From the NCBI GenBank assembly GCA_018004935.1, contig JAGNBF010000013.1, positions 1 to 64,000 of the forward strand: 64,000 nt of DNA, given 5' to 3'. The notes beneath the pieces are model-generated. The model was not told the DNA's origin. It saw only the letters and a program-made list of their open reading frames with translations, and made no database searches. Position 1 is the stretch's first letter; each line of letters begins with the position of its first letter. This document shows, in pieces, positions 106 to 61,446 of this stretch. The position numbers and the translations under genes are program-made. The DNA is from Chloroflexota bacterium (GTDB taxonomy: Bacteria > Chloroflexota > Anaerolineae > Promineifilales > Promineifilaceae).

Positions 106-135
106 GTGAGTATGCAATCGCCCTAGGATTTGTGG

Positions 136-165: not shown

Positions 166-208
166 GCCCAACAAAACATTTGGAACTTGTTTCTAAAGGA
201 ATACTCCC

Positions 209-1291: not shown

Positions 1292-1615
1292 GGAATGAGA
1301 ACTAAATAACCTGGTTCTTGGGGGTTTCGTGGGGTGCGGGCAACCCTTGTGGTTGCCCCACACAGGGCAGGCACAAGGCCAGCCCCTACATCTGGTGTCT
1401 ACCTCCTGAATTCCCCAAAGAACCAATAACTTGTTTGCGGGGAGTGGCACGGTCTGGAGACCGGCCACAGCAAATTGGGTTACAGTAACAACAGTGAATG
1501 AGAGAAGACGTGAGGCTATGGCTTCACGTCTTCTTTTGTGCCAGCTCATAGAGTTTAACCCGCGTCACCCTCCTTTATTGAGAAGATACCCTTTTCCCTT
1601 ATTACGGAGTTCAAT
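1292..1615. repeat. Repeat-filled intergenic region
   Basis: No gene. About 1317-1422 is a family A repeat (complementary GGGCAACCC and GGGTTGCC blocks, shared with 3824, 34217, 48441 and 59421). About 1443-1475 is a family B repeat (GTGGC..GGTC..GACC..GCCAC core). A terminator-like stem follows at 1502-1537. Confidence 0.8.
1502..1537 (+). terminator. Intrinsic terminator-like hairpin
   Basis: GAAGACGTGAGGC pairs with GGCTTCACGTCTTC across a short loop, with one G-T pair, and is followed by TTTT. It could end the protease transcript, or a transcript entering from upstream, before the HEAT-repeat gene. Confidence 0.6.
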
Positions 1616-2569: not shown

Positions 2570-2893
2570 TGAGTTGGTGTAGGGGCTGGCCTTGTGCCCG
2601 CTCCGTCCAGGACAACCACAAGGATCAGCCCTACAGGTGGTGTCAACCCCCGGAAATACGGGCACAATCTGCGGTTTTTTTGTCCTGTCGCTTTATCGCC
2701 GTGTCGGGTATATTCGAGGCTCCCCACCCTTAGGGTTTGTAAAAATATAACTTCCCGGTTTAGACCTGACAGGTTTCCGAAAACCTGTCAGGTCTCGACG
2801 GAACTTAATCTTTTACCGGCACTAAGGACAAACCTGCGGAAGGCTGAACGGTTCCCCATTTCTAAGAGCGAGAGTTTCCTGAGTCCCCCCCCC
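2570..2893. repeat. Repeat-filled intergenic region that extends the downstream frame
   Basis: A family A repeat in inverted orientation covers about 2575-2655, and a family C palindrome (ACCTGACAGGTTT..AAACCTGTCAGGT) covers 2764-2797. The reading frame of the next gene stays open through both, which creates a false 100-residue N-terminal extension. Confidence 0.75.
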
Positions 2894-3805
2894 GTGACTG
2901 AAATCATTGACGTTCTCCTCAACAATATATTGCCCATTTTTCTGGTGGCAGGGATTGGTTTTGCCTTGCGTCGTGCGGCGGGGGTAGATGTACGGACTGT
3001 GGCCCGTGTCACCTTCTATGGCTTGAGTCCCTGCCTGGTTTTTTATTCCCTGGTCACAGCGCAACTTCAAAGTAGTGAGCTGTTGCTTTTGGGTGGCTAC
3101 TCCTTCATTAACATCCTGCTCATGGGTGGTGTTGGCTGGGTGGTGGGGTGGTTGTTACGCCTGGCCCATCTGGATACCGTCGCGCTGATATTGGCTTTGA
3201 TGTTTGTTAATAGTGGTAATTATGGGCTGACTTTGTTGGAGTTACGGTATGGGGAAACTGGGGTGGCCCGGGGAATCGCTTATTTCATTGTTAGCACAAT
3301 TCTGGCCTATTCGTTGGGGGTGCTGGTGGCCTCTTCTGGTAAAAGTTCGCCACAACAGGCACTCCGCCAACTACTGCGCGTTCCGGCGGTGTATGCGGTT
3401 ATCCTGGCGATTCTGGTTTATGCCCTGGACATACACCTGCCAACGCCCATTCTTAGTGGTCTTGAGATTGCCGCACAGGGGGCTATTCCGGTAATGCTTT
3501 TGGTTTTGGGGATGCAATTGGCGGATTTGCGCGTGATGGAAGGCATTGGTATTGCGACTGTGGCCGTATTCCTGCGCCTGGGGGTGGCTCCGCTGTTGGC
3601 GTTATGGCTGGCTGATAGGATGGATCTGGAAGGGATAAGCCGGGCCGCTATGTTGTTAGAGGCGAGTATGCCGACCGCGGTTTTGGTGATTGTGTTAGCG
3701 ACGGAATTTGACGTGCGGCCGCGACTCATCACCACCATCGTTGTCCTCTCTACCCTCCTCAGCCCCCTCACCTTAGCCATCCTCATCTCCTGGGCCGGAT
3801 TATAA
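2894..3805 (+). CDS. AEC-family (auxin efflux carrier-like) membrane transporter
   Basis: A 303-residue integral membrane protein with about ten hydrophobic segments arranged as two five-helix halves, as in the AEC/bile-acid-sodium-symporter fold group. Bacterial members carry small carboxylates such as malate or malonate. The substrate cannot be read here. GTG at 2894 was chosen because the family normally begins directly with the first helix (VTEIIDVLLNNILPIFLVAG here) and because the open frame upstream is repeat DNA. The ribosome-binding site is weak. A single GCGGCCGC lies near the 3' end. The gene converges with rlmN across a family A repeat. Confidence 0.8.
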   Translation: MTEIIDVLLNNILPIFLVAGIGFALRRAAGVDVRTVARVTFYGLSPCLVFYSLVTAQLQSSELLLLGGYSFINILLMGGVGWVVGWLLRLAHLDTVALILALMFVNSGNYGLTLLELRYGETGVARGIAYFIVSTILAYSLGVLVASSGKSSPQQALRQLLRVPAVYAVILAILVYALDIHLPTPILSGLEIAAQGAIPVMLLVLGMQLADLRVMEGIGIATVAVFLRLGVAPLLALWLADRMDLEGISRAAMLLEASMPTAVLVIVLATEFDVRPRLITTIVVLSTLLSPLTLAILISWAGL

Positions 3806-3823
3806 GAGTAACTGTTCAGCATT

Positions 3824-3931
3824 TTGGGTCTTCGGGGTTTCGTGGGGTATGGGCAACCCTTGTGGTTGCCCACACGGGGCAGGCACAAGGCCAGCCCCTA
3901 CATCGGGTGTCACCCCCCTGAATTCTCAAAC
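3824..3931. repeat. Family A repeat overlapping the 3' end of rlmN
   Basis: It shares the GTATGGGCAACCCTTGTGG and GGCACAAGGCCAGCCCCTAC blocks with the copies at 1317, 34217, 48441 and 59421. Its right end provides the last five codons (ENSGG) and the stop of rlmN. Confidence 0.8.
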
Positions 3932-4998
3932 CCCCCACTAACGATCCGGTCCCGCAACTGCCCACATCCTGCCTGAATATCAATTCCCCGCCGCACGCGC
4001 ACCGTACTGGTGACGCCGTAACGGGTCAATTCTTCCTGGAACGCCTGTACCCGCATGGGGTCTGAAGGGCGGCCGCGATACCCTTTGGTCGGGTTCAGAG
4101 GAATCAGGTTAACATGGCATAACATGCCCCGTACCAGATTGCCCAGTGCCCGTGCCTGCTCCACCGTGTCATTTTCTCCAGCGATCAACGCCCATTCAAA
4201 GGTCAGGCGGCGCCCTGTTTTGGTGACATAGTAACGGCACACTTCCATCAGGTCGGCGATGGGCCATTTGCGGTTGATGGGAATCAGCCGGTTGCGCTCC
4301 TCATCAGTGGCCGCATGGAGAGAGATAGCCAGCGGCGTTTGTCGTTGTTCATCGGCATAGCGGCGAATGGCGGGAATCAGCCCCACGGTGGAGATGGTAA
4401 TTTTGCGTGCCCCCAGGTTGTACGCATCGGGCGCAATAAGCCGATCCACGGCTGTCAGGGTGTGATCATAGTTGTGGAGTGGCTCACCCATACCCATCAT
4501 AACGATATTGGTAACGTGTTCTCCGGTTTGTGCCAGCTCACGGGCGAAGTACATGACCTGTTGAATGATTTCACCGCTGGTCAGGTTGCGTAAGAAACCC
4601 ATCTGCCCGGTGGCACAGAAAACACAACCCATGGCGCATCCGGCCTGGGTGCTGATACAGAGGGTGCGCCGTTTGTCGTAACGCATCAGCACCGTTTCAA
4701 TGTATTTGCCGTCGGGCAAGTGGAGCAGAACTTTGGTGGTTTGCCCATCGCGGGAATATTCGCGGGCGGCGATGGTGTAATCATGCAGGGTAACGCGTTC
4801 GGCCAGGGCGTCACGCAGACTTTGTGACAGGTTGGTCATTTCGGCCAGGGTGGCGGGGAATTTTTGGTAAAGCCATTGCCAGATTTGTTTGGCGCGGAAG
4901 GCGGGCTGACCTAGTTCGGTCAGGAGTTCGGTCAGAGCGTATTGGTCGAGGTCGTATAGGTTCATCATAAAAGCATTTGGGGTTATGGATGACTCCAT
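3910..4998 (-). CDS. rlmN: 23S rRNA (adenine-2503-C2)-methyltransferase / tRNA m2A37 methyltransferase
   Basis: Radical-SAM enzyme that methylates C2 of A2503 in 23S rRNA and A37 in some tRNAs. The CxxxCxxC cluster motif is at Cys121, Cys125 and Cys128 (CAMGCVFC). Cys345 in QAGCGQL corresponds to the methyl-carrying Cys, and Cys114 in RTLCIS to the resolving Cys, of E. coli RlmN. The length of 362 residues is typical. The first ATG has GAGGGG in front, whereas Met11/Met12 has no such site, so 4998 is kept. The last five residues (ENSGG) and the stop lie in a family A repeat, so the native C-terminus was probably slightly different. Confidence 0.95.
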   Translation of the reverse strand: MESSITPNAFMMNLYDLDQYALTELLTELGQPAFRAKQIWQWLYQKFPATLAEMTNLSQSLRDALAERVTLHDYTIAAREYSRDGQTTKVLLHLPDGKYIETVLMRYDKRRTLCISTQAGCAMGCVFCATGQMGFLRNLTSGEIIQQVMYFARELAQTGEHVTNIVMMGMGEPLHNYDHTLTAVDRLIAPDAYNLGARKITISTVGLIPAIRRYADEQRQTPLAISLHAATDEERNRLIPINRKWPIADLMEVCRYYVTKTGRRLTFEWALIAGENDTVEQARALGNLVRGMLCHVNLIPLNPTKGYRGRPSDPMRVQAFQEELTRYGVTSTVRVRRGIDIQAGCGQLRDRIVSGGFENSGG

Positions 4999-5342
4999 GA
5001 CAGCCCCTCACCCTAACCCTCTCCCCAGGGAGAGGGAACTAAGTAATCGTCCAAGAATAAGTTCCGCGCAGACCTGACAGGTTTCCGAAAACCTGTCAGG
5101 TCTAAACCGGGAAGTTATTTTTAGATGTTCACTAAGAATTAAATAACCTGTTTACTGAAAGTGGCACGGTCAGGAGATCGGCCACAGCAGTTTCGTAAGT
5201 TATGTAATTCGCGTTCCTTAGGAATGAGAACTAAATAACTTGTTCGCTAGGAGTGGCACGGTCAGGAGACCGGCCACAGCAAATGTTCAAGTTATTTAAT
5301 CGCCAATCCTTAGCGTCTTGGCGGTTCCTTTTTTCAGTAGAC
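4999..5342. repeat. Intergenic repeat cluster (families C, B, B)
   Basis: A family C palindrome lies at 5071-5104. Two family B copies at about 5158-5190 and 5250-5283 are separated by related A/T-rich spacer (AATTAAATAACCTGTTT, then AACTAAATAACTTGTTC). No gene was found. The spacing and the divergence of the copies exclude a CRISPR. Confidence 0.8.
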
Positions 5343-6155
5343 TCATCCCTGTAGAAGAGTTTTCCGGAGGGCGGTGATGTCGTCAAAGATTAGATCAGGA
5401 TGGATGTGAGTGCGGGTGATGTCAGCGCGGCCGCTAATGCCTGACAGCACCAGTATTGTTTTTAGCCCCAGGGCTTGCGCTCCGACAATATCTGTTTCCA
5501 GGCGATCCCCAACCATGGCGGTGGTGTCTGGGGTGGCGTGGAGACGGCGAAGGGCTTCCTGGAAGAGGATGGGGCCGGGTTTGCCGATGAGGGTAGGCGG
5601 GATGCCGGTCGCGGCCGCGACGAAGGCAATCACCGCTCCGGCTCCCGGCAAATGTCCTACCTCACTGGGGTAAGTTACATCCGGGTTGGTGCCAATGAAA
5701 GTAGCCCCCCGTTGGATGAGCAGGGTGGCACAGGCCAGTTCGTTGTAGGTGACTTGCCGCGCCAGGCCGACGATGACCGCCGGGATGTTGTCGTTGAGCC
5801 GTGTGTAGTCGGGGTCGGTAATGACCGTAAAACCCTGGTTGGCAACGGCCTGTTGTAACCCCACCTCCCCAATGACGTAGATGGATGTGCCGGGGGGGAA
5901 AAGGGAACGTAGATGGGACGCGGCCGCTTCGGATGAGGTGACTATTTGCTCTGGGGTAACAGTGACCCCAAAGCGGGCCAGTTTTTGGACATAGAGGGCC
6001 GCGTTGCGGGTGGCGTTGTTGGTAGCCAGGGCAAAACCGATCCCCTGCTGGTGTAAGGTGGCAAAAAAATCGGCCAGGCCAGGCAAGGGGGTTTCGCCCT
6101 GCCAGAGCACGCCGTCCATGTCAAGAATAAGATTAGAAATAGGAAAGGAACTCAT
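5343..6155 (-). CDS. HAD-IIA family phosphatase (NagD/PNPase-like)
   Basis: A 270-residue haloacid-dehalogenase phosphatase with a class IIA cap. Motif I LDMDGVLW carries the Asp nucleophile and acid (Asp12, Asp14). ATNNATR is motif II, GKPGP supplies the motif III Lys, and GDRLETDI is motif IV. NagD-like enzymes remove phosphate from nucleoside monophosphates and small phosphosugars; the true substrate is not readable. ATG at 6155 was chosen because GAGAG precedes it, the protein then has the family length, and motif I falls at the expected place. An open frame continues 49 codons upstream without family similarity. Three GCGGCCGC octamers occur in the gene. Confidence 0.85.
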   Translation of the reverse strand: MSSFPISNLILDMDGVLWQGETPLPGLADFFATLHQQGIGFALATNNATRNAALYVQKLARFGVTVTPEQIVTSSEAAASHLRSLFPPGTSIYVIGEVGLQQAVANQGFTVITDPDYTRLNDNIPAVIVGLARQVTYNELACATLLIQRGATFIGTNPDVTYPSEVGHLPGAGAVIAFVAAATGIPPTLIGKPGPILFQEALRRLHATPDTTAMVGDRLETDIVGAQALGLKTILVLSGISGRADITRTHIHPDLIFDDITALRKTLLQG

Positions 6156-6645
6156 GGAAACTCTCATCAGACTGCTTAGGATCGTTGGCTTTACCCCTTC
6201 TCTCTGGAAATTATCAGACAGGTGGATTGAAAATCTGGGGGAGTTGTGGACAACGGGATAGAGTTTACCACAAACCCGTTGAACGTTGCGTAGGTTTGCC
6301 AATGGTCATCGCTATTTTCAGTGAGGGTGAACAGCCTGATTGTTCATTAAATTTTTAATCGGGTAACGCATTCATTCATCTCCCCTGCCGATTCCCGAGG
6401 GAAGGGGGGAATTCCCATGGGGTATTTTTCGGGGCGAATGCCCCGAAAAATGCCCCTTAGAAAAGTTCCCCGCCCCTGGAGGCGGGGTTAGGGGTGGGGG
6501 GATTCCATTACCTGATTAATTTTTTAAACGACAAAAAGGCTGTTCTACCCCGGGATGGGGGATGGGTATTCAGCCCAAATCTACCCAGGCTGTGGCCACA
6601 AACAAAATGTCACTTTATGACCGTGGTAAGTATAATCACGCTCCC
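6156..6645. repeat. Intergenic region with family F hairpin and family G repeat
   Basis: Family F copy: arms at 6419-6435 and 6440-6456, with C/G-rich flanks (about 6380-6510). Family G repeat: about 6574-6640 (AACAAAATGTCACTTTATGA, then GTGGTAAGTATAA), shared with 29.0, 39.2 and 42.3 kb. The G copy ends in TATAAT at 6631-6636, ten bases before the next start codon. No good -35 was seen. Confidence 0.75.
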
Positions 6646-8253
6646 ATGTTCAACCGTCAATTGTCAACCATTAATCGTTCCTCGTTTTGGGTGTTGGTAG
6701 GGTTGGTGGGAATCGCGGCCGCGGTGCGGTTCCCCTCTCTCTTTACCCATAGTTTCCATGCCGATGAAGCCCTATACGCCAGTTATGCCCGGCTGATTGG
6801 CACAGGGCAAGATATGTTGCTCCGCTCTACCTGGGTGGACAAACCCCCCCTTCTCTTTTACCTGCAATCCCTTTTCTACCCCCTCATGCGCCAGCCCGAT
6901 CCTTTTGTGGCTCGTCTGCCTGATTTCATTGCGTCTATTCTGCTGGTGCCGCTGGTAGCCCGGCTGGTGAGACAGTTATACGGCGAGGGCACGGGCAGGC
7001 GAGCCGCCCCTAGCCTGATGAATGAGGGGGAATGGGTGGGCTGGCTCGCGGCCGCGTTCGTGGCCCTTTCGCCTTACACCATCCAGTTTAGTAGCACAGC
7101 CTTCCTTGATCCCCTGTTGACATTTTGGCTGGTAGCGGCCCTGGTCGCAATGAGCCGGGAAAATACGCTTATAAGCTATGAGCCGTCGCCCCATCTGAGA
7201 CGGGCACTCTCTCGGGCCACCTATTGGGCTGGTTTCTTGTTTGGTCTGGCCGTGGTGACAAAGTTCCAGGCCGGGCTGTTTTTACCGTTGGTGGTGGGGA
7301 TAGGGGCACTGAATGGGTGGCGCGGCCGCGAATGGCGACAGTGGTTCATAGGCTTTGTGCCGGTGATTCTGGCCTTGTTGGCCTGGGAACTGGCCCATCG
7401 TGGCACCTTGACACTGTGGCAGGGGCAGATGTTTAGTTATGGTGGCCTGCGGCTGAGTTGGTCCTGGGAATTATGGTCACGTCTGGAGCAGTGGGGGACA
7501 CTGTGGCAATACACGGTGGGATCCCCGCTATTAGGTTTTGGTCTACTCTTATTGTTGCCCTTGTTTCTGGCGTTTCTTATACAAGAAGAGGATCGCCCCA
7601 CCTATACGGATCAACTTTTTGTTCTTTTTACCATTGCCTATTTCCTACTCCATTGGTTTGTGGCCATCCCTGTGTGGGATCGGTATTTACTTCCGTTGGT
7701 GCCCATTATCGGCATTATTTTGGGAAGGTTTACGGGGCGGATTGTTGGCTTTTTTGGCCCAATTCTGTTGCCGGTTCTTTATACACTGACCTATTTTCGC
7801 CTGAGACAACAGGCTTTGCGCCACACAATTTTTGTTTTGCTGTTTCTGGCCCAGTTGCCGATTGCGGCCGCGGCCGCACGTTCTACCTATCCCATCGGCG
7901 GTCATCCTAACCAGGACGACGGCACCGCGCAGATTGCCGGGTGGCTGGCTGATGAGCCGTATGGCACGGTTCTGTATGACCATTGGTATGGCTGGCACTG
8001 GCGCTATTACCTGTATGGGCAGACCGTATATCCCCATTGGTTCCCTGACACCGAAGCCCTGCTGGAAGATTTACAGGTTTTTGGGCGGCAACCAGAGGCT
8101 CGTTACCTGGTTCTACCCCCTGATCCGGCGGTGGGTCAGCCGGTTTATCGTACCCTGACGGAGGCCGGTTATACGTTGACCTTGGTAGGTACGGCGGTTT
8201 TACCAGATGGTCAGGCGGGGGCCTCACTTTATCGCATTATGACAGGGCAATAG
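6646..8253 (+). CDS. GT39-type membrane glycosyltransferase (ArnT/PMT-like)
   Basis: A 535-residue polytopic membrane enzyme of the GT-C fold, which moves a sugar from a polyprenyl-phosphate donor to an acceptor on the outer face of the membrane. The acidic motif ADEA (Asp40-Glu41) in the first external loop, after the first membrane helix, is the catalytic signature of the family. About ten more hydrophobic segments follow. ATG 6646 was chosen because the 28 codons before it are a family G repeat. It forms a likely operon with the YfhO-like gene, which begins 13 bases later. Five GCGGCCGC copies occur, two of them overlapping (7864/7870). Confidence 0.8.
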   Translation: MFNRQLSTINRSSFWVLVGLVGIAAAVRFPSLFTHSFHADEALYASYARLIGTGQDMLLRSTWVDKPPLLFYLQSLFYPLMRQPDPFVARLPDFIASILLVPLVARLVRQLYGEGTGRRAAPSLMNEGEWVGWLAAAFVALSPYTIQFSSTAFLDPLLTFWLVAALVAMSRENTLISYEPSPHLRRALSRATYWAGFLFGLAVVTKFQAGLFLPLVVGIGALNGWRGREWRQWFIGFVPVILALLAWELAHRGTLTLWQGQMFSYGGLRLSWSWELWSRLEQWGTLWQYTVGSPLLGFGLLLLLPLFLAFLIQEEDRPTYTDQLFVLFTIAYFLLHWFVAIPVWDRYLLPLVPIIGIILGRFTGRIVGFFGPILLPVLYTLTYFRLRQQALRHTIFVLLFLAQLPIAAAAARSTYPIGGHPNQDDGTAQIAGWLADEPYGTVLYDHWYGWHWRYYLYGQTVYPHWFPDTEALLEDLQVFGRQPEARYLVLPPDPAVGQPVYRTLTEAGYTLTLVGTAVLPDGQAGASLYRIMTGQ

Positions 8254-8266
8254 TAGGTCAATAACC

Positions 8267-11134
8267 ATGCCTGACGCACCACGCCCCACCCGAAACGGCT
8301 TTTCTCTCCCGCCTGAGGTAATTCGTTTTGCTCCTTATGCCTTGATAGCAGGTATTATCCTGCTTTTTTTGCATAAATTGGCCTTTAGTAACCTGATTTT
8401 GGGGCGTGGGGATACGTTTCTCTATTTTTACCCCTATTGGCACGCGGCCGCGGAACGTTTACGCGCCGGTTCTATTCCCCTGTGGAATCCGGCCCTCTTT
8501 ATGGGCGCACCCTTCCTGGCTAACAGCCAGACCGGGGTGTTGTATCCTCTTAACTGGCCTCTCTGGTTACTTTTGCCCACCCCTTATGCTGTCAGTGCCA
8601 CGATTTTACTCCACCTGATGATTGCCGGGTGGGGGACGTACCGGCTGGGTAAAAGAATGTTGGGGTTGGGGAACGCGGCCGCGTTTTTGGCCGCCGTTCT
8701 TTTCGCCCTGGGCGGCTACCTGACAGCCCAAGTGGAGCATGTGAATCAGGTGCAAGGGTTGGCCTGGTTGCCGTGGGTGTTATGGGCAGGTAGCTGTCTT
8801 GAATTTCGCCCGTCGCATGGGGCGATGGGGCGTAACCACACATCATTTATCCGGCGTGTTCTGTTGTTGGCACTCTTTTGGGCGTTGCAACTGCTGGCCG
8901 GACATACGCAAACGGCCTTTATTACCGGGGTGGCCGTGGCCTCGATGGCCGGGGTGGCTTATTTACAATTGACCATTGACGATTGGCGATTAACGATTGG
9001 GGACGGGCGATTGACAGCCTCACGCATTATTCAACAGGTCGCCCCGTTCATCCTGGGGGCGTTACTGGCGGTGGGGCTTGCGGCCGCGCAACTGCTTCCC
9101 ACCCTGGAACTCATCCGCCTCTCCAGCCGCCAGGGGGGATTACCCTTCAATGAGGCTGTCTCTTTTTCCCTGCACCCGCTGTTGCTGGCACGCGCCTTAC
9201 TTCCCGCTTATGGGCAAGGTCTGTTTACGGAGTATGTGGCCTTCCTACCACTTACCGCCTTATTGCTCGCCTTCATCGGGGCCTGGTCGTGGCGGCGGGA
9301 TCGAGCCGTGTGGCCGGTATTGTTTTTAACCGGGTTGGGTTTATTTTTGGCCTTGGGGCGCTTCAATCCTGCCTACTGGCTCATTGCCCGCGTACCCGGC
9401 TTCGATTTGTTCCGTGTTCCCGCCCGGTGGCTGGTGCTGTATGGCCTGGGGATGGCGTTGTTGGCGGGTGTGGGATGGGAGAGGGTGAGTAGTGAACAGT
9501 GGCGCATAAAAAGCGACCGGTGGCGGAAGGTGTTATGGTCGTGGGGGATTGTTTTGGTGGGGTTGATGGTGTGGGGGATGGTCTCTGTGCCTTTGGCCCG
9601 CTTCCTACCCATCGGCCCGGAAGCTCCTGCCGCCTACCCTTCCTGGCTGACGTGGAGTGGCTGGCTGGTGGAAGGGGTGGTTGGTTCTGGGTTGTTGGTC
9701 GCTGGCCGTAGACTTACTGAGTACTACTTACGGGTTGCGGTTTACTGTTTATTGTTCAGCTCCCTATTCCTGGCTTCACGGACCTTGCCCTACCATGCCC
9801 ATGTCACTACCCCAGAAGCATTTTTTGATTTGCGGCCGCCGATAACACGTCTGCTGGCGGAAAATAGCCCTGAATTGGGTGACGCCTCCGTTTATCCCCC
9901 CCGTTTTCTTAGCCTCTCTGATATTTTCTTTGATGTGGGGGATCAGGCGGAGATTGATTCTGTTTATGCCGGACGGTTGTCGGAGTTAGCCCGGTTTGAT
10001 TACACCGTTGCCATCAAACAAAAAGAAGTGGTGGCACCGAATTTGCCTCTGGTGGTTGGCCTTGCGGCCGCGGATGGGTTCGATGGGGGTATTTTGCCCT
10101 TGCAGAGCTATAGCCAGCTTACCACCCTCATCCTGCCCGCAGGGGTAGTCACCACTGATGGCCGCCTACGCGAGAATCTAGACCATGTTCCCCCGGCCCG
10201 CTGGCTGAATTTATTCAACATTGGTTATGTGATTACTGACAAGGTAGGCGATGCCTGGCACGAAGGGGTCTTTTTTGATTTACAGCACCCGGTGATGCTG
10301 ACGGCCGCGGCCGCGGTCGGTTATATTCCCCCGTATGAGGCCACTGAACTCTGGCTTGTTGCTTCGTCCGGCGACTTTTGGGTTGACATAACCACTCTTT
10401 CTGGTCGGCAATGGCAACTCTCGCCCCAACCGTTGTCTGCTGATCTGTGGCAGGTCGTTTTCCCTGAACCTGCCACCGCCACGGCCATTAGCGTGCGGCC
10501 CACAGCGATACTTGCAGACTCACCCCCGTACCTCAATGGTCTGAGCCTGGTAGATAGCCGTGATCATAGTTTTCAACCGCTGGTTCTGGGGGCATACCGG
10601 CTTATTCATTCTGGGGATGTGAAGATTTATGAGAATCTGGAGGTGTTGCCGCGTGCTTTTTTGGTGTATGAATGGGATATAGCCTCAGACGCGGCCGCGA
10701 CGCTTGACCTCATGCGTGATCCTTTGTTTGATCCGGCACGGCGGGGGGTTGTGGAGGGTGAACCGTTGCGTGTAAACCGTGAACCGGTATCTGTAGGGGC
10801 AGATGTCACTGTTGAGGCGGATGTTGTGATGACATCTTATGCTCCGGAACGGGTAGAGATGCGGCTGGATGCGGCCGCGCCTGCCTTGCTTATTCTTACA
10901 GATAGTTATTATCCTGGCTGGCAGGCCACATTGGATGGGGAAGCGGTAACAATCTACGAGGCAGATCTATTGTTTCGTGGGGTATTTGTGCCGGAGGGGG
11001 AACACCAATTGGTGCTGAGTTATGAACCGGTGAGTTGGGCACGCGGCCGCGTTGTGTCCCTCATAACCCTCATTTTCTGGCTCAGTTTGGTAAGCGTTCA
11101 GTTATTCCGCCCGGCGGTCAAACCGCCGGGCTAA
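8267..11134 (+). CDS. YfhO-family giant membrane protein
   Basis: A 955-residue protein with about a dozen membrane helices in the N-terminal 500 residues and a large external C-terminal region. The closing block (DSYYPGWQATLDGE, then VFVPEGEHQLVLSYEP, then a last helix) is characteristic of YfhO proteins. These resemble GT-C glycosyltransferases and are linked to cell-surface polymer glycosylation. It is probably cotranscribed with the GT39 gene in front. The final codons (RPAVKPPG) lie in a GC-rich hairpin (11109-11131) whose degenerate copy sits at 39674-39708, so the C-terminus appears repeat-derived. It holds nine GCGGCCGC octamers. Confidence 0.8.
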   Translation: MPDAPRPTRNGFSLPPEVIRFAPYALIAGIILLFLHKLAFSNLILGRGDTFLYFYPYWHAAAERLRAGSIPLWNPALFMGAPFLANSQTGVLYPLNWPLWLLLPTPYAVSATILLHLMIAGWGTYRLGKRMLGLGNAAAFLAAVLFALGGYLTAQVEHVNQVQGLAWLPWVLWAGSCLEFRPSHGAMGRNHTSFIRRVLLLALFWALQLLAGHTQTAFITGVAVASMAGVAYLQLTIDDWRLTIGDGRLTASRIIQQVAPFILGALLAVGLAAAQLLPTLELIRLSSRQGGLPFNEAVSFSLHPLLLARALLPAYGQGLFTEYVAFLPLTALLLAFIGAWSWRRDRAVWPVLFLTGLGLFLALGRFNPAYWLIARVPGFDLFRVPARWLVLYGLGMALLAGVGWERVSSEQWRIKSDRWRKVLWSWGIVLVGLMVWGMVSVPLARFLPIGPEAPAAYPSWLTWSGWLVEGVVGSGLLVAGRRLTEYYLRVAVYCLLFSSLFLASRTLPYHAHVTTPEAFFDLRPPITRLLAENSPELGDASVYPPRFLSLSDIFFDVGDQAEIDSVYAGRLSELARFDYTVAIKQKEVVAPNLPLVVGLAAADGFDGGILPLQSYSQLTTLILPAGVVTTDGRLRENLDHVPPARWLNLFNIGYVITDKVGDAWHEGVFFDLQHPVMLTAAAAVGYIPPYEATELWLVASSGDFWVDITTLSGRQWQLSPQPLSADLWQVVFPEPATATAISVRPTAILADSPPYLNGLSLVDSRDHSFQPLVLGAYRLIHSGDVKIYENLEVLPRAFLVYEWDIASDAAATLDLMRDPLFDPARRGVVEGEPLRVNREPVSVGADVTVEADVVMTSYAPERVEMRLDAAAPALLILTDSYYPGWQATLDGEAVTIYEADLLFRGVFVPEGEHQLVLSYEPVSWARGRVVSLITLIFWLSLVSVQLFRPAVKPPG
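11109..11131 (+). repeat. Hairpin at the end of the YfhO gene
   Basis: GCCCGGCGGT pairs with ACCGCCGGGC around CAA, immediately before the stop codon. No T-run follows, so termination by it alone is doubtful. A related sequence is at 39674-39708. Confidence 0.6.
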
Positions 11135-11184
11135 GCCGCCAGGCCAACGGCCTTTGTCGCTGTTCTATGGTTGGTGGTTGCTCC

Positions 11185-13917
11185 CTATTCGTCCAATAAT
11201 ACAACTGGCTCCTGATAATAACGGAACCGGCTCCGCGCTAACTTTTCTTTCAGAAACTCATTAAACCAGGCCCGTTTGGCGGCCATTGGTTCATCCTGCA
11301 TCAGCCGTTGCAAATCCGCATTCAGGCGTAATATTCGCCCTGGAATGACAAACCGTGTCAGCCCGGCGGGGAGTAAATCGCCCCGACTGGCAACGTCAAA
11401 CACGGTTTCTGGGGTGAATTGGGGGAAGACGGCAACCGCTACCATTTGGGGGAACTGCACTAACAGGCGGCCCGCATCGGTCAGGAGTGTCCGTTCTACC
11501 TGCCCCCAGGCGGTATAACGGGCCACCAGCTCATTCATAACAGCCAGTTTGTTGCCGCCGGGTTCTACCTGGGCCAATGTGGCCTGCCCCTGCCGATCCA
11601 AAAAGTAGCACAAGACATCTTCTTGTTTGAAGGTGTTGGGAATGGCTTCGGTGGGTAAGGAGGTGAGCCGCAGATACTCAATCTGGCGCAGGTGGGCAAA
11701 AAGAGCCGCAACCGGTTGGGGCGCAGAAATGGCATGGTACCAGGTGTGTAAGGCGAATCCTTCGCGGCTGGTGTCGGCAATTTGAATGATGACGGCGGGG
11801 AAACCGAGCCGTTTCATGGCGGTGAAACGGGTAGCCCCATCCAATATGATGTACCGCCCTTGCCAGAGAACGGTGATGGGTGGGTTTACCAGCCGATCAT
11901 CTTGTTCCAGGCTTTGCATGAGGCGGGCTACTCGTTTGTCGTCAATTTGTTCGTGGGGCATTACCTGATCAGTGGGCACGATTTCCAGAGAGAGGGCTTC
12001 GCTGGGGGGACGAACTTTGAAGGTGGCGGCGAGTTGGTGGATGACGGTTGCGGCCGCGTCCTGGCGATTGCCCTTCATAAATTCTGTCACATGCCGGGCA
12101 ACGATTACTTTGGGGTGGTGTTTCAGGGGGGCAATAGGCCGTTGTTCGGCCTGGCCAATGCGTGAGGCAAAAGAGGCCAACGCGGCTCCTGCCAACCGGT
12201 TACTGTTGAGTGCCTGTAACAATGCCTCATCATCAATCAGGTCTGTGTGTGCTGTATTGATGAAGTAGGCGGTTTGTTTCATCAGGGCCAGCTCTTTTTC
12301 ACCGATGAGGGTTTGCGTTTCCAGTTTAAAGGGCACATGCAGACTGACAAAATCCGCTTCGCGTAGCAAATCTACCAGGTCCGTAGCGGTGACACCCGCT
12401 TCTAGCGCCAGTTCTGGGGTGAGACGGGGCTGGTTGACAATGACCCGCATCTCAAAGGCCAGAGCGCGTTGAGCTACTTGCCGCCCAATCCGACCAAAAC
12501 CGATGATACCCAGGGTTTTACCGGCCAGACCACCCCCTAATTCATCATCCCGGCTGGCCAGGGTAAGCATCCGCCCAAGGGTGTGTTCGGCGACGGCGAT
12601 GGCGTTACTGCTGGGATGATAACAGAGGGTGAGGCCGAAGGCGCGGGCGGCACTGACATCTACATTGTCCAGGCTGGTACCCGTACAGCCGATAGCCCGT
12701 AGTTTATATCCTTGTTCAATATCGCGGCCGCTGATGTGCGTTTTTTCATCTACTATCACCGCTTCATAATCACCGATGATATTTTGCAAAGTCTCCTCAT
12801 TGGGTTCCAGGACCACATCTACCTGGGCAAATTGGCGTAAGGTATTGAGGGCCTCGGGGGCGAGCTGTTCGCAGACGAGGATACGAGGTTGGGTGGGGGT
12901 AGCCGATGGTTGGCTGGTGGTGACTGGCTGGGCGGGTGTGGGCGTAGGGGTAGGCTGGGGCCGACTGAGGCTAAAGGGGAGTTGGGTTACATCTACATTG
13001 CCCCCGCTTAGCAAAATACCTACCCGCTGGCCGGGAGCCTGATAGGTTCCGGTAAAGAGGGGAGCCAGGGCCACAGCGGAACTGGGTTCGACAATAATTT
13101 TTAAGCGTGTCCAGAGGAAGTACATTGTTTCAATGATGGCTTCTTCGGTGACGGTGGTCATGTCATGTACGTATTGGCGCATGATAGCCAGATTGCGCTG
13201 ACCGATGAAGCGGGTACGCAGGCCATCGGCGAGGGTTGTCGGCACATGGGGCAGGGTGTGGATGTGGCCTGCCCGCCAGGAGAGGTTGGCATCACCACCG
13301 CTGGCCGGTTCGACACCAATGACGCGACAGGCAGGGGCTAACTGCGCGGCCGCGAGGGCGCTACCACTGATTAGCCCACCACCACCCACTGGCACAAAGA
13401 GCATGTCGAGCGCCTTTACCTGGGTAAACAACTCCCAGGCCGCGGTTCCGGCTCCGGCAATGATGTGGTCATGATCATAAGGGTGGATGAGGGTGTAGCC
13501 ATGTTCCTCGGCCAGTTGGGCGGAGATTTTTTCCCGGTCTGCGGCCGCGCAGGTGACAATTTTTGCGCCATACCCGGCGGTGGCGTCCCGTTTGACGGTG
13601 GGGGCATCATCTGGCATGACGATAACGGCTGGTATATTTAGGAGTTTGGCGGCCAGGGCCAATCCCTGAGCATGGTTGCCACTGGAGTGGGTGATGACAC
13701 CGCGCTTTTGGGCAGTTTCATCGAGTTGGCTAACGGCGTTATAAGCCCCCCGGAATTTGAAGGCCCCGACGCGTTGGAGATTTTCACACTTGAGAAAAAC
13801 CTCGCGGCCGCAGGCCAGATTGAGGCTGTGGGAGGTGAGAACAGGGGTATGATGGGCAATGCCATAGAGACGTTGGCTTGCGGCCGCGACATCCTCAGGG
13901 GTAACAGATAGGCTCAT
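11185..13917 (-). CDS. Three-module fusion: serine/threonine dehydratase-like + D-2-hydroxyacid dehydrogenase-like + SbnI/SerK-like serine kinase
   Basis: A 910-residue fusion. Module 1 (about 1-317) is a fold-type II PLP enzyme like threonine dehydratase or serine racemase: Lys54 in GAFKFRGA binds PLP, with SSGNHAQ at 78-84 and GGGG at 178-181. A Pro/Thr linker spans about 318-344. Module 2 (345-635) is a D-2-hydroxyacid/phosphoglycerate dehydrogenase fold with GxGxxG at 473-478. The catalytic Arg of the usual ARG motif is His557 (NTAHTD) and the usual Glu region is replaced (ASFASR), while His609 remains, so it may be non-catalytic. Module 3 (about 643-910) matches SbnI/SerK ParB-fold free-serine kinases: PHE (Glu656), LDGATRF at 692-698, and TRFVIPGR near 854. 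The start at 13917 follows AGGAG. No serine-pathway neighbours are present. Confidence 0.85.
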   Translation of the reverse strand: MSLSVTPEDVAAASQRLYGIAHHTPVLTSHSLNLACGREVFLKCENLQRVGAFKFRGAYNAVSQLDETAQKRGVITHSSGNHAQGLALAAKLLNIPAVIVMPDDAPTVKRDATAGYGAKIVTCAAADREKISAQLAEEHGYTLIHPYDHDHIIAGAGTAAWELFTQVKALDMLFVPVGGGGLISGSALAAAQLAPACRVIGVEPASGGDANLSWRAGHIHTLPHVPTTLADGLRTRFIGQRNLAIMRQYVHDMTTVTEEAIIETMYFLWTRLKIIVEPSSAVALAPLFTGTYQAPGQRVGILLSGGNVDVTQLPFSLSRPQPTPTPTPAQPVTTSQPSATPTQPRILVCEQLAPEALNTLRQFAQVDVVLEPNEETLQNIIGDYEAVIVDEKTHISGRDIEQGYKLRAIGCTGTSLDNVDVSAARAFGLTLCYHPSSNAIAVAEHTLGRMLTLASRDDELGGGLAGKTLGIIGFGRIGRQVAQRALAFEMRVIVNQPRLTPELALEAGVTATDLVDLLREADFVSLHVPFKLETQTLIGEKELALMKQTAYFINTAHTDLIDDEALLQALNSNRLAGAALASFASRIGQAEQRPIAPLKHHPKVIVARHVTEFMKGNRQDAAATVIHQLAATFKVRPPSEALSLEIVPTDQVMPHEQIDDKRVARLMQSLEQDDRLVNPPITVLWQGRYIILDGATRFTAMKRLGFPAVIIQIADTSREGFALHTWYHAISAPQPVAALFAHLRQIEYLRLTSLPTEAIPNTFKQEDVLCYFLDRQGQATLAQVEPGGNKLAVMNELVARYTAWGQVERTLLTDAGRLLVQFPQMVAVAVFPQFTPETVFDVASRGDLLPAGLTRFVIPGRILRLNADLQRLMQDEPMAAKRAWFNEFLKEKLARSRFRYYQEPVVLLDE

Positions 13918-54736: not shown

Positions 54737-54773
54737 CGTGGTGAAGAGATGCAATACGAGTCGAGGGATACAA

Positions 54774-56066
54774 ATGGCTAAAATAGAAGGTTTCAGAGTA
54801 AGAAACTATAGAGTACTTCATGATGTTACTTTGGGAAAACTCTGGAATACACAGAATGCAGAACCGTTAACACCTATGACAGCTGTGATAGGTAAGAATG
54901 GTGTGGGGAAGAGCACACTTTTTGATGCCTTTGGTTTTCTTTCAGATTGCTTGAAAGTAGGAGTGGAAGAAGCCTGTGATTTACGTGGGCGCGGGGGATT
55001 TGAAAGAATTCGGTCACAAGGTGAGACCGATGGGATCGAATTCCAGGTTTATTACAAAGAAGATGGTAATGCCCGGCCTATTACCTATGAATTAATGATT
55101 GATACTGACACAACAGGTAGACCTTATGTAAAACGCGAACGATTACGTCAACGCCGTCGCGGACAGAGTAAAGGTTGGCCCTTTTCATTTCTTATATTAA
55201 ATGGAGGGAAAGGTGTTGCCTGGAAGGGTGATGAAGAAGGAAAACTTGTAGAAGAAGATGAAAATGAGTTTGATTTGCTACGCCTGATGGAGAAAATTCA
55301 GAGAGGCGAAATCATTGAAGAGAGCAAAGAAACAGAGTTAGTTGAGCTTGATGACAAACGCAAATTGGGAATTGCTACCTTAGGATCTCTCAAACAACAC
55401 CCTCGGATTTCTGCGTTTCGGAGATTCATAGAGGGTTGGTATCTTAGCTATTTTACCCCTGATGCTGCACGTAGTTTACCTCTGGCTGGTCCTCAGAAGC
55501 ACCTAAATGTACATGGGGATAATTTAGGTAATGTTGTTCAATTTATGGAAAGAGAACATTCCAGAAGATTTCAAGCTATTTTGGATAGGATTGCCAACAA
55601 AATTCCTGGTGTGTATAAAATCAGCACAGAAAGAAGCCCTGATGGCAGGTTGTTGCTTAAGTTTAATGATAGAGGATTTTATGATCCGTTCTACGCTCAA
55701 CAAATGTCTGATGGTACCCTGAAAATATTTGCTTATCTTCTTCTGTTGGAAGATCCTTCACCCCCTCCATTTTTATGTATTGAAGAGCCTGAGAACGGTC
55801 TTTATCACAAGCTTTTAGAGACTTTAGCCCAAGAATTTCGGGGACATGCCACAGGTCGTAAAGGAGGGGCACAACTGTTTGTAACGACTCACCAACCTTA
55901 TTTTGTAGATGCACTTGAGCCAGAAGAAGTATGGGTTCTAGAAAAAGGCCAGGATGGATTTTCTACCATCAAACGTGCCAGCGAAGATGATATTGTTAAG
56001 AATCTTGTAGCTGAAGGATTGCCTTTAGGGGGGTTATGGTATAGCGATTATTTTGATGGGAGATAA
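54774..56066 (+). CDS. AAA/ABC-type ATPase of a probable two-gene defence module
   Basis: A 430-residue SMC/OLD-like ATPase. Walker A GKNGVGKST is at 40-48, the signature region QQMSDGTLKIFAYLLLLEDP near 318, Walker B FLCIEEPENGL, and H-loop VTTHQPYF. An insert of about 150 charged residues lies between the halves (KGDEEGKLVEEDENEFDLL). The architecture matches AAA_21/RecF-like ATPases paired with TOPRIM-like nucleases in anti-phage systems (established for related pairs; inferred here). The start at 54774 has GAGGG before it. It is more AT-rich than neighbours and has no GCGGCCGC, in the longest octamer-free stretch of the window (54405-57158). Confidence 0.75.
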   Translation: MAKIEGFRVRNYRVLHDVTLGKLWNTQNAEPLTPMTAVIGKNGVGKSTLFDAFGFLSDCLKVGVEEACDLRGRGGFERIRSQGETDGIEFQVYYKEDGNARPITYELMIDTDTTGRPYVKRERLRQRRRGQSKGWPFSFLILNGGKGVAWKGDEEGKLVEEDENEFDLLRLMEKIQRGEIIEESKETELVELDDKRKLGIATLGSLKQHPRISAFRRFIEGWYLSYFTPDAARSLPLAGPQKHLNVHGDNLGNVVQFMEREHSRRFQAILDRIANKIPGVYKISTERSPDGRLLLKFNDRGFYDPFYAQQMSDGTLKIFAYLLLLEDPSPPPFLCIEEPENGLYHKLLETLAQEFRGHATGRKGGAQLFVTTHQPYFVDALEPEEVWVLEKGQDGFSTIKRASEDDIVKNLVAEGLPLGGLWYSDYFDGR

Positions 56067-56070
56067 GAAA

Positions 56071-56742
56071 ATGCACTTTGAGATACTCACTGAAGATATG
56101 TCTGGTAAAACTGCGCTTGAGATTCTAATTCCTAAAATTATAGATACTCAACAACATACCTTCCGGGTGAAATCATATAAAGGAGTAGGGCATCTTCCTG
56201 GGGGATTAAAACCAAAATCTGATCCACAGAAGCGCATTCTGCTTGATCAACTTCCTCGACTGATTCAAGGGTATGGTCGAACATTTGCAGGCATGCCTGG
56301 TTTTACAGCCGTTTTGATAATTGTTTTCGATCTGGATGATCGTTGCTTAAAGAATTTTCGCCGCGAACTGCTTGGTCTGTTAAACAACTGCCATCCTAAA
56401 CCTGGAACGTATTTTTGCCTGGCAGTAGAAGAAGGAGAAGCCTGGTACTTGGGTGATTTTGCAGCAGTGAAATCGGCTTACCCAAATGCCAAAGATGTAA
56501 TCTTAGACGCCTATATCAATGATTCGATTTGTGACACGTGGGAAAAACTGGCTGATGCTGTTTATAGTGGTGGTGCTCATAAGCTAAAACAATTAGGTTG
56601 GCAGTCTGTGGGCAGAGAAAAAGCGATTTGGGCTGAACGAATATCACCTTTTATGATCGTGGATAACAATTTATCACCTAGTTTTTGCTATTTTCGGGAC
56701 AAATTGCGTCACTTGAGTAACTATAAAGCGGAAACAGAGTAA
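56071..56742 (+). CDS. DUF4276/TOPRIM-like partner protein
   Basis: A 223-residue protein that starts four bases after the ATPase stop with GGGAG before ATG 56071. A TOPRIM-like acidic set can be seen: Glu8 (LTED), Asp87 and Asp89 (VFDLDDR), and Glu120-Glu123 (VEEGEAWYLGD). This fits DUF4276, which pairs with RecF/OLD-like ATPases. The likely role is nucleic-acid cleavage triggered by the ATPase (inference). AT-rich, no GCGGCCGC; the two genes look horizontally acquired. Confidence 0.65.
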   Translation: MHFEILTEDMSGKTALEILIPKIIDTQQHTFRVKSYKGVGHLPGGLKPKSDPQKRILLDQLPRLIQGYGRTFAGMPGFTAVLIIVFDLDDRCLKNFRRELLGLLNNCHPKPGTYFCLAVEEGEAWYLGDFAAVKSAYPNAKDVILDAYINDSICDTWEKLADAVYSGGAHKLKQLGWQSVGREKAIWAERISPFMIVDNNLSPSFCYFRDKLRHLSNYKAETE

Positions 56743-56861: not shown

Positions 56862-57590
56862 TTGAAGTCCATTCTTATGCCTCAAATGATTATCGGCGAT
56901 TTGGTTGTGGATGTGGTGCGGAAGAAGGTCAAAAACTTCAATCTGGGGCTGTATCCGCCAGATGGGCAGGTACGGCTGTCTGTGCCCTGGCGGGCCGATA
57001 AGGAAACGATCCGGCTGTTTGTCCTGTCAAAAATGGACTGGATCAAGAAGCATCAGGCTAAATTTCAGCAACGGGAAAAGCCCCGCCCACTGGAATTTGT
57101 GACCGGGGAAACGCATTACTTTCAGGGTAAACCGTATTTGTTGCAGGTGGTTGAGCACGCGGCCGCGCCCCGCATCACCCTCAAAGATCAGACCACGCTA
57201 GAGTTGAAAGTGCCGATAGGCAGTACCGCCGACCAACGGGAGCACCTGCTGTTGGCCTGGTATCGCCAGCAGTTAAAGCAGGCCATCCCGCCCCTCATCG
57301 AAAAATGGTCGGCGGTGATGGGGGTGCAGGTCAACGAGTGGGGGGTGAAGCAGATGAAGACACGCTGGGGGAGTTGTAACATCAAAGCCAGACGCATCTG
57401 GCTCAACCTGGAACTGGCCCGAAAATCACCCCCATGCCTGGAATACATCATCGTCCATGAACTGGTACATTTGTTAGAGCGCGGCCACAATCAGCGGTTC
57501 TACGCCTTTATGGATCAATTTTTGCCCCACTGGCGGTTGTTGAAAGAGGAGTTGAACCGGTCAACCACGGGGATATTGTCTGAAGATTGA
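56862..57590 (+). CDS. YgjP-family (SprT-like) zinc metallopeptidase
   Basis: A 242-residue M48-type metallopeptidase fold protein (YgjP/DUF45). The zinc motif is His199-Glu200 and His203 in HELVHLL, with a third ligand at His209 in ERGHN. QMKTRWGSCN is the conserved signature before it. Homologues often accompany type I restriction-modification loci; none is seen here. The start may be 56862 or 56877 (MPQMIIGD). One GCGGCCGC returns here, marking the end of the foreign-looking stretch. Confidence 0.82.
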   Translation: MKSILMPQMIIGDLVVDVVRKKVKNFNLGLYPPDGQVRLSVPWRADKETIRLFVLSKMDWIKKHQAKFQQREKPRPLEFVTGETHYFQGKPYLLQVVEHAAAPRITLKDQTTLELKVPIGSTADQREHLLLAWYRQQLKQAIPPLIEKWSAVMGVQVNEWGVKQMKTRWGSCNIKARRIWLNLELARKSPPCLEYIIVHELVHLLERGHNQRFYAFMDQFLPHWRLLKEELNRSTTGILSED

Positions 57591-59535: not shown

Positions 59536-61215
59536 TTACGGCTCCTCATAATGCCAATCTTCGGTGCTGGTTTTGTGTAGGAGCGGCCGCACCAAGCCAA
59601 ACTGCGCCACCGTTTTCTCCGCCAACTCACTGTACGACCCCCGCGCCACAAATCGATCTACTTCGGCCAAAGCCTTGTCCCTCTTGGCTGTGTTGTCTTT
59701 GTACTTCTCCCGGATGCTGGCCTTCAACGCTTCTAACGCTTTGGGGTCTTTGACCTCACCCGCATCACGCCAGGGGAAAACCGCATCAATCGCCAGCCCT
59801 GTGGCATGACGGGTGACACCGGAATAGTTGTTCGGTTCCTTCCGTTGATCACCGCTGGGATAACCCTCGGCGGCCTGGGCACCACTCCAGGCGTTGGTGG
59901 CGTTGGATTGTGCCTGGCCCATCGTCCATCCTTCTTGATACCACGCGTTCCCGTCTTCATCTTTGCCCTTTTCCCCTTTGCTGTTTTCCAATGTTTGTAG
60001 CTTACTCAGCCCGATTTTACCTTCGCGGATAGACCAGGCGGTGCTCCATTTGTGGGCCACACCGGGCGAGCGCATCCCGTAGGTGAAGTAAATGTCCCCC
60101 GTCACCAGATCATTCTCCAGGGCGTGATTGGCCATGTTGTGCATCTTGTCCAACAAACTCTGTTTGAGGTTGATGTCGTTCATCGTGACCTGGAACCCTT
60201 CACTTTTTTCCGTCGCCGGGTTGTATTTGATGGTGTATTTGGTTTTGGTGGGTGGTGGTGGCAGAACGGAGCCTTCTTCGGTGGGTGGTTCCGTAGCCGG
60301 GGTTTCTGCGGTAGGTGTTTCACCGGGGACGGTTGTGGGTGCTTCCGGTTCAGATGGGGTTTCGCCCAAAAGAGGGAAGAGGACGTGCTCTTGCAAAAAA
60401 TGGCCGATCTCCTGGAGATCGGGTAGCAGACCGAGCAGAGAATCTTCCTCGGCGTTTTCCGGGGTGAGTGTTTCCGGAGTTTCGGGCGCGGCCGCGTCCT
60501 TCCCCTCTTCTTCCCCCGTTGTTGGCACAGGGGGTGGAGCCGCCAGGGCCGGTTTCACCTCGTTGTCCCGGATCGCCTTCCACTCCTTCACGGCATCCGG
60601 CTCGGTAGCCGGGTCAATGGGGCTGTTCTGCCGGTCAGGGTGGCGGGCGTAGAAGACGACATTGGTGAGGGTGTTGGCATCCCGTTCCCCCTGCGCTATG
60701 GCCGAAGCTAACGCGGCCGCGCCCGGTTCTACCGTTTCTTGGGGCGTGGGCGTCGTTGCGGTGGTTGTTTCTTCACTGAAAAAGCCGGTCACAAACGTAC
60801 CAAACTCGTCTACCAGACCGCCCAAGGTGTCAGGCACGCTTGTTACCAGGGTGACGACTTCGGCCAGAGCCGCGGGACCGGCGGTGAAAATGGCACTCAG
60901 GCCGGTGTCATCGCTGGTGGGCGTCGCGGCCGCGTCCCCGGTGGGGGTCGTGGTGTCCTCACGTTGCAGGGTGGGCCGGGCCTCGCGTAGGAGCCGTTGC
61001 ACCTGGGCGTTGCCGTGTTGCCGCTGGAGGTGCAGGATGGCGGCCTGACGTTGCGGCCGCGTATTGCTCACCGCCGGAATCCCCAACAGACCAGTGTTGC
61101 CTGAGCCGGTCCACTCGGCCGCCGAAGCCTGTCCGAGGGTGCTGGGATTTGTTTTGGGTCGTTCTGGGATGCGGATGTTGATCTTGCCCGGATTGACACT
61201 CTGTTTTTCGCTCAT
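59536..61215 (-). CDS. Probable contractile-injection-system cargo with M15/VanY peptidase domain
   Basis: A 559-residue protein. Residues 61-76 (LHLQRQHGNAQVQRLL) match the LQRxxGNxxVxRL motif of proteins carried by extracellular contractile injection systems. The middle (80-340) is a low-complexity Thr/Pro/Glu linker. The C-terminal domain (about 345-559) has the M15/VanY peptidase pattern: His470 and Asp477 in TRHATGLAID, and His555 in DWHYEEP. It would cleave D-Ala-containing cell-wall peptides. No signal peptide. No sheath or tube genes lie in the window, but the operon continues toward the right edge. Five GCGGCCGC copies. Confidence 0.65.
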   Translation of the reverse strand: MSEKQSVNPGKINIRIPERPKTNPSTLGQASAAEWTGSGNTGLLGIPAVSNTRPQRQAAILHLQRQHGNAQVQRLLREARPTLQREDTTTPTGDAAATPTSDDTGLSAIFTAGPAALAEVVTLVTSVPDTLGGLVDEFGTFVTGFFSEETTTATTPTPQETVEPGAAALASAIAQGERDANTLTNVVFYARHPDRQNSPIDPATEPDAVKEWKAIRDNEVKPALAAPPPVPTTGEEEGKDAAAPETPETLTPENAEEDSLLGLLPDLQEIGHFLQEHVLFPLLGETPSEPEAPTTVPGETPTAETPATEPPTEEGSVLPPPPTKTKYTIKYNPATEKSEGFQVTMNDINLKQSLLDKMHNMANHALENDLVTGDIYFTYGMRSPGVAHKWSTAWSIREGKIGLSKLQTLENSKGEKGKDEDGNAWYQEGWTMGQAQSNATNAWSGAQAAEGYPSGDQRKEPNNYSGVTRHATGLAIDAVFPWRDAGEVKDPKALEALKASIREKYKDNTAKRDKALAEVDRFVARGSYSELAEKTVAQFGLVRPLLHKTSTEDWHYEEP

Positions 61216-61224
61216 AGAAACGAC

Positions 61225-61446
61225 CTATTCGGCCAAATCGCGCACAATTTTAGTTTCCATCAGTGGGGCCACATCCCCGGCCGGAGCAAACAACCCGGCT
61301 AACCCTTGCACAATCCATTCACCCCAACCCATCTCCTGCTGGGCTTCCGCTTCAGCCACAGCGTCTTGCCACTCTGGGCGGTCACTAAAATCTTCACCTT
61401 GATTTTTCTGTTGTAGATGATTCATCAATAACCAATATTTGTTCAT
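61225..61446 (-). CDS. Small protein upstream of the cargo gene, unknown
   Basis: A 73-residue protein (MNKYWLLMNHLQQKNQGEDF, then a helix with WGEWIVQGLAGLFAPAGD). ATG 61446 was chosen because AGGAG lies seven bases upstream. It ends nine bases before the cargo gene start and is likely cotranscribed. It could be an immunity, chaperone or loading factor, but nothing in the sequence decides. No GCGGCCGC. Confidence 0.55.
   Translation of the reverse strand: MNKYWLLMNHLQQKNQGEDFSDRPEWQDAVAEAEAQQEMGWGEWIVQGLAGLFAPAGDVAPLMETKIVRDLAE

What the first reader, a model, noticed from the sequence alone, without database searches (positions are those of the whole stretch)
59536..61446. Likely injection-system cargo with a cell-wall peptidase head
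LHLQRQHGN..VQRLL at 61-76 is the cargo-type motif of extracellular contractile injection systems, and a VanY-like active site (His470, Asp477, His555) sits at the other end of a 260-residue low-complexity linker. A 73-residue gene precedes it and a LuxR regulator sits upstream. This suggests an antibacterial or lysis-related effector whose apparatus genes lie outside the window.
Basis: partly seen in the sequence, partly recalled or inferred. Interest (0 to 1): 0.6.

Follow-up and report, generated by a model that had tools for sequence, protein, structure and literature searches.

The report
Orphan cargo of a bacterial nanosyringe
This gene most likely encodes a protein that a phage-tail-like bacterial syringe carries and injects: it bears the same address-like front end as genes sitting beside a complete syringe operon elsewhere in the same genome, joined to a probable, but not proven, cell-wall-cutting enzyme.

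Summary
The ORF (59536-61215, minus strand, 559 aa) and the 73-aa ORF before it are real. Three genes directly behind the C151 baseplate gene carry the window protein's N-terminal motif (46-63% identity), found by a search with the window protein alone. A 35-residue motif profile (TRPxRQAxxLxLQRxxGNxxVQRxL, near residues 45-80) finds nine copies in the genome; five, including this one, lie on contigs without a detected sheath or CIS_tube gene. In 298 genomes of the class, 22 of 24 motif-positive genomes have CIS_tube, against 72 of 298 overall (Fisher p 3e-13). Payloads behind the motif are mutually unrelated. The motif also precedes the eCIS_core domain (DUF4157), which this protein lacks. 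So: unlinked eCIS cargo, confidence about 0.8. The M15 (VanY-like) payload is likely but unproven: both catalytic motifs are present in order (1 in 10^6 shuffles), yet no profile match is significant, no homologue was found and AF2 models are poor. A paper read here says no conserved eCIS loading sequence was detected; this motif is a candidate for one.

The parts
59536..61215 (-). 559-aa putative eCIS cargo: polar N-terminus (1-44), conserved leader motif (45-78), low-complexity linker (about 79-340), M15-like C-terminal part (about 345-559)
60982..61083 (-). conserved eCIS-cargo leader motif GIPAVSNTRPQRQAAILHLQRQHGNAQVQRLLRE (residues 45-78)
   Evidence: profile A1 hit E 1.1e-16; shared with three genes behind the C151 eCIS baseplate gene
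60181..60987 (-). acidic Pro/Thr/Glu/Ala-rich linker, residues 77-345
   Evidence: 52% P+T+E+A, net charge -31
59539..60183 (-). probable M15 (VanY/VanX-like) metallopeptidase domain, residues 345-559
   Evidence: motifs TRHATGLAID 468-477 and EDWH 552-555; VanY profile E 0.08 on a fragment at the matching profile positions; AF2 single-sequence models poor, mean pLDDT 46 and 49
59785..59814 (-). first catalytic/zinc motif T-R-H-A-T-G-L-A-I-D (His470, Asp477)
59551..59562 (-). second catalytic/zinc motif E-D-W-H (Glu552, His555)
61225..61446 (-). 73-aa ORF immediately upstream, probably co-transcribed; no relative found; chaperone, immunity factor or unrelated
   Evidence: Shine-Dalgarno AGGAG, 9-base gap; no homologue in 39 genomes; no family

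Best explanation
The gene encodes an orphan (operon-unlinked) cargo of the producer's own extracellular-type contractile injection system. Steps shown here: the genome has a complete CIS; the protein shares its N-terminal leader with genes directly behind that CIS; the leader co-occurs with CIS genes across the class and fronts mutually unrelated payloads. Steps inferred: the leader (polar N-terminus plus conserved segment) is what the CIS loading machinery, either the AAA ATPase or the tube/spike, recognises; the protein is packed into the tube, extended along its low-complexity linker; and on firing the C-terminal M15-type zinc peptidase cuts peptidoglycan stem peptides or cross-links in the target cell.
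For: A genome search with the window protein alone finds C151:22713, 24137 and 25351 among six non-self hits. C151 carries, in order, a WHD+AAA ATPase, an eCIS_core protein, sheath, two gp19 tubes, CIS_tube, GPD/gpV spike, a DUF4280 PAAR-like protein, a gp25-like protein (by position and sequence, not profile-tested) and Baseplate_J, then three motif genes. Two other CIS loci are on C207 and C91. Motif versus CIS_tube over 298 genomes: 22 of 24 against 72 of 298 (Fisher p 3e-13); all six genomes with a strong motif are CIS-positive; 22 motif hits lie within 25 kb of a CIS_tube gene. The eight G000 cargo compared share no similarity after residue 95. Payloads beside the CIS of relative G021 include Aspzincin_M35 (E 2e-13 and 3e-12) and Het-C (E 7e-15). 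M15 signature in 1 of 10^6 shuffles. Published eCIS toxins often have long linkers, AlgoCIS cargo have disordered N-termini, and one validated eCIS toxin was predicted to hydrolyse peptidoglycan (PMC8213781, PMC8894135).
Against: No physical linkage: no sheath or CIS_tube match on the window's contig. It lacks the eCIS_core (DUF4157) domain. The profile was built partly from these proteins, and related genomes are not independent observations. The M15 assignment lacks a significant profile match, a homologue or a confident model. The genome is a draft in 229 contigs with 3% contamination, although the tetranucleotide correlation of the window with C151 is 0.97. Loading and delivery are untested. 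Hydrophilicity of the first 50 residues is unremarkable (31st percentile of session ORFs) and no aromatics occur in the first eight residues, unlike the published eCIS signal-peptide description (PMC11297309).
Confidence: 0.6

Rival explanations
1. It is an eCIS cargo, but the payload is not a peptidoglycan peptidase: the M15-like motifs are coincidental or belong to another zinc hydrolase acting on other targets.
For: No significant M15 profile hit on the whole protein; with a profile of nine VanY proteins from related genomes, 2293 of 20,000 shuffles score as well as the query; no homologue. Several other cargo carry HExxH or M35 proteases rather than wall enzymes.
Against: Both M15 motifs occur in order and at plausible spacing, with an upstream YGMRS resembling the conserved M15 arginine (1 in 10^6 shuffles for the two motifs).
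Confidence: 0.2
2. The system is a cytoplasmic or self-acting CIS, as in Streptomyces, and the payload lyses or remodels the producer's own wall rather than a competitor's. (This differs from the best explanation only in the target.)
For: Cytoplasmic CIS that trigger producer cell death are documented (PMC10066040, PMC10020575); no recognisable immunity gene beside the cargo, only an unidentifiable 73-aa ORF; the genome encodes a VanY-type enzyme of its own.
Against: No data here on where the particles act; tail fibres and membrane-anchor genes of C151 were not examined.
Confidence: 0.25
3. The motif is a structural, tape-measure-like or tube-lining segment, and the protein is a non-injected CIS component.
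For: Published CIS effectors include tape-measure-related proteins (PMC11126660, PMC13277306); the motif is a short segment near the N-terminus.
Against: Nine copies in one genome with unrelated C-termini, and toxin-like domains in several family members, fit variable cargo better than a structural part.
Confidence: 0.08
4. A housekeeping wall carboxypeptidase unrelated to CIS.
For: M15-like signature only.
Against: No signal peptide or hydrophobic N-terminus (the most hydrophobic 19-residue stretch starts at residue 106); the 35-residue leader matches CIS-operon genes; co-occurrence with CIS.
Confidence: 0.04

Closest known systems
eCIS-associated toxins with eCIS_core/DUF4157 (PF13699), e.g. 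Cgo1/Cgo2 of Algoriphagus (PMC8894135) and the EATs of PMC8213781
   Same: N-terminal low-complexity region, variable C-terminal payload, same genome as an eCIS; a short form of the motif (LQRxxGNxxVQR) lies N-terminal to eCIS_core in this genome and relatives
   Different: No eCIS_core domain, longer conserved leader, encoded away from the operon
Photorhabdus PVC effectors with N-terminal signal peptides (Pdp1; PMC11297309, PMC11495950)
   Same: N-terminal leader presumed to direct loading
   Different: No conserved sequence is reported for PVC/Afp leaders; here a 35-residue motif with six invariant positions in 12 sequences
EAT10, predicted peptidoglycan hydrolase linked to an eCIS (PMC8213781)
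   Same: Predicted cell-wall-degrading payload of an eCIS
   Different: Different organism; operon-associated; no sequence comparison made here
VanY/M15 metallopeptidases (PF02557, PF13539)
   Same: S/T-x-H-x2-G-x-A-x-D and E-x-W-H motifs in order
   Different: About 85 residues between the YGMRS segment and the His motif; no significant profile match
MIX and prePAAR marker motifs of T6SS effectors
   Same: Short conserved element with unrelated payloads, usable to find effectors
   Different: Other machine; no sequence comparison made here (prePAAR: PMC7773334; MIX: PMC10673891, abstracts only)

Membership tests
eCIS cargo/effector | A CIS apparatus in the same genome | tested here: met
   Complete operon on C151, further loci on C207 and C91
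eCIS cargo/effector | Gene within or next to the CIS operon (usual, not strictly defining: cargo need not be linked) | tested here: not met
   No sheath or CIS_tube match on the window's 103-kb contig; three leader relatives are adjacent to the C151 operon
eCIS cargo/effector | Leader shared with operon-encoded cargo candidates | tested here: met
   46-63% identity over 35 residues to three C151 genes
eCIS cargo/effector | Physically loaded in particles and delivered | not testable with these tools
   Needs particle proteomics or cryo-ET
eCIS_core (DUF4157, PF13699) proteins | eCIS_core domain with HExxH | tested here: not met
   No Pfam hit; PF13699 finds five other places in the genome, not this one
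Peptidase M15 (VanY/VanX) | Zinc/catalytic motifs SxHxxGxAxD and ExWH in order | tested here: met
   468-477 and 552-555; 1 of 10^6 shuffles
Peptidase M15 (VanY/VanX) | Significant profile or fold match | tested here: inconclusive
   VanY E 0.08 on a fragment only; none on the whole protein; local VanY profile negative; AF2 models too poor to compare
Peptidase M15 (VanY/VanX) | Peptidoglycan peptidase activity | not testable with these tools
   Needs an enzyme assay

The most novel reading that the evidence does not exclude
The motif T-R-P-x-R-Q-A-x2-L-x-L-Q-R-x2-G-N-x2-V-Q-R-x-L is a sequence-conserved loading or docking signal of a contractile injection system, of a kind reported as not detected so far. 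It defines a scattered cargo repertoire (nine genes here, five on contigs without a detected CIS gene) and is related to the segment in front of eCIS_core proteins.
Probability: 0.4. Interest if true: 0.75.

Novelty: new variant of a known kind. Interest (0 to 1): 0.58.

Why it matters
eCIS cargo are mostly recognised by sitting next to structural genes or by carrying DUF4157, and the literature read here reports no conserved loading sequence (PMC11297309). A short motif that marks cargo anywhere in a genome would enlarge the known repertoire, and it makes the open question of how an eCIS recognises its cargo directly testable by changing a handful of invariant residues.

Tried and rejected
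Homologues of the whole protein or its C-terminal part in genome, viral, phage and plasmid collections: none. Weak hits in other genomes of the phylum and class were inspected and are unrelated ORFs. PDB sequence search: chance hits. hhalign and a local VanY profile: no support. AF2 without an alignment: pLDDT 46 and 49, so no fold search was run. A shared upstream regulatory element among cargo genes: none seen. A small gene equivalent to the 73-aa ORF before other cargo: none convincing. The motif strings tried were not in the paper library. A housekeeping carboxypeptidase: rejected on the leader and the missing signal peptide.

Full report
What is there. The window is the first 64 kb of contig C83 (103 kb) of a draft genome of 7.98 Mb in 229 contigs. 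At 59536-61215 on the minus strand an ORF of 559 codons starts with ATG. Its parts are a polar N-terminus, a conserved segment GIPAVSNTRPQRQAAILHLQRQHGNAQVQRLL ending at residue 76, an acidic Pro/Thr/Glu/Ala-rich linker and a C-terminal part with TRHATGLAID (468-477) and EDWHYE (552-557). A 73-aa ORF with a good Shine-Dalgarno sequence ends 9 bases before it. No Pfam, NCBIfam, PHROG or PADLOC family matches the whole protein at a meaningful level.

The apparatus exists. The sheath profile matches on C151, C207 and C91. C151 holds an ordered operon: WHD/AAA ATPase, eCIS_core protein, sheath, two gp19 tubes, a large 1299-aa protein, CIS_tube, spike, DUF4280 PAAR-like protein, a gp25-like protein (assigned from sequence and position) and Baseplate_J. 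Directly behind Baseplate_J come three closely spaced genes of 472, 397 and 468 aa.

The link. A search of the genome with the window protein alone returned six other places; three are those three C151 genes, and the match is confined to the leader region. By chance three of six in one 40-kb stretch has probability about 2e-6. The leader of the first C151 gene is 63% identical over 35 residues. A profile of 12 leaders (A1) finds nine copies in the genome: four on C151 (including the eCIS_core protein, in the short form) and one each on C50, C83, C167, C175 and C221. None of the latter contigs has a sheath or CIS_tube match.

Generality. In 298 genomes of the class, 24 have the motif and 72 have CIS_tube; 22 have both (Fisher p 3e-13). 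These genomes are related, so p is only indicative, and the weak motif hits are mostly the short form in proteins with a downstream HExxH, as in eCIS_core. All six genomes with a strong motif (G000, G013, G021, G034, G035, G049) are CIS-positive. Twenty-two motif hits lie within 25 kb of CIS_tube. In G021 and G013 motif genes follow Baseplate_J as in C151, in G021 after some intervening genes. In G049 one motif gene lies on a 72-kb contig separate from its CIS_tube loci, so unlinked cargo is not unique to this genome.

Payloads. Beyond residue 95 the eight G000 motif proteins compared share no similarity. In G021 the payloads include Aspzincin_M35 and Het-C; the second C151 cargo gene and its relatives have HExxH. 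This is the architecture of variable cargo with a constant leader.

The C-terminal domain. Against chance the two M15 motifs in order are strong (1 of 10^6 shuffles; each alone 4e-4 and 1.4e-2). Against profiles the case is weak: VanY E 0.08 on a 104-aa fragment, aligned over the His motif, nothing on the whole protein, and no support from a profile of nine VanY from related genomes. No homologue was found in any collection searched. AF2 without an alignment is uninformative. I therefore hold 'M15 peptidase' at about 0.75 and 'cell-wall target' somewhat lower. Equating these motifs with M15 rests on established knowledge of the VanX/VanY family.

How it probably works. The leader is recognised by the CIS loading machinery, the protein is packed in the tube with its linker extended, and firing delivers the zinc peptidase to a target where it cuts peptidoglycan. 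Sharing of the leader, co-occurrence and payload variety are shown; recognition, packing, delivery and enzyme activity are inferred. Whether the target is a competitor or the producer itself cannot be told: both extracellular and producer-killing CIS are documented (PMC8894135, PMC10066040).

Known or new. eCIS effectors, long linkers and the DUF4157 marker are known, and a predicted peptidoglycan hydrolase has been validated as an eCIS-associated toxin (PMC8213781). A conserved loading sequence is stated not to have been detected (PMC11297309), and the motif strings I tried were absent from the paper library, which lacks most subscription journals and all bioRxiv preprints. The find is thus a new variant: cargo marked by a conserved leader without eCIS_core, often encoded away from the operon.

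Limits. The taxon was not identified by tool. Draft assembly and binning could hide linkage or bring in foreign contigs; composition argues against the latter (tetranucleotide correlation of the window with C151 0.97). The apparent lack of CIS genes on the unlinked contigs rests on two profiles (PF04984, PF19266). The published eCIS signal-peptide features are only partly matched: residues 6-21 are positive (+3), but there are no early aromatics and hydrophilicity is ordinary. Confidence: cargo of a CIS about 0.8; the full statement including a peptidoglycan-cutting M15 payload about 0.6.

Noticed in passing
window 54738-56066 and 56053-56742 (+): Overlapping gene pair, AAA_21 ATPase plus DUF4276-like protein, matching PADLOC candidate defence system HEC-01A/B at E 5e-196 and 3.5e-92.
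   Followed up: partly
window 56862-57590 (+): YgjP-like metallopeptidase (E 4e-62) directly behind the defence-like pair.
   Followed up: no
L061 (G021:C42) 1-11517: Five leader-bearing genes beside a CIS in a relative, with Aspzincin_M35 and Het-C payloads among them.
   Followed up: partly
G000:C151 27311-34123; G021:C42 12835-14754; G013:C228 1-7461: Ser/Thr-kinase-like genes lie next to the cargo genes of all three CIS loci, with FHA-like genes at C151 and G013; possible regulators (by inspection).
   Followed up: no
window protein and C151 cargo, just after the motif: A second short element LQR[ET][DE] recurs shortly after the leader (window PTLQRED, C151 genes GSLQREE and AHLQRTD).
   Followed up: no
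L087 (G000:C159:18838): A 533-codon frame with eCIS_core on a contig with no detected sheath or CIS_tube gene and without the long leader.
   Followed up: no
G000:C207 and G000:C91: Two further CIS loci in the same genome, one cut by the contig end: three systems in one genome.
   Followed up: partly
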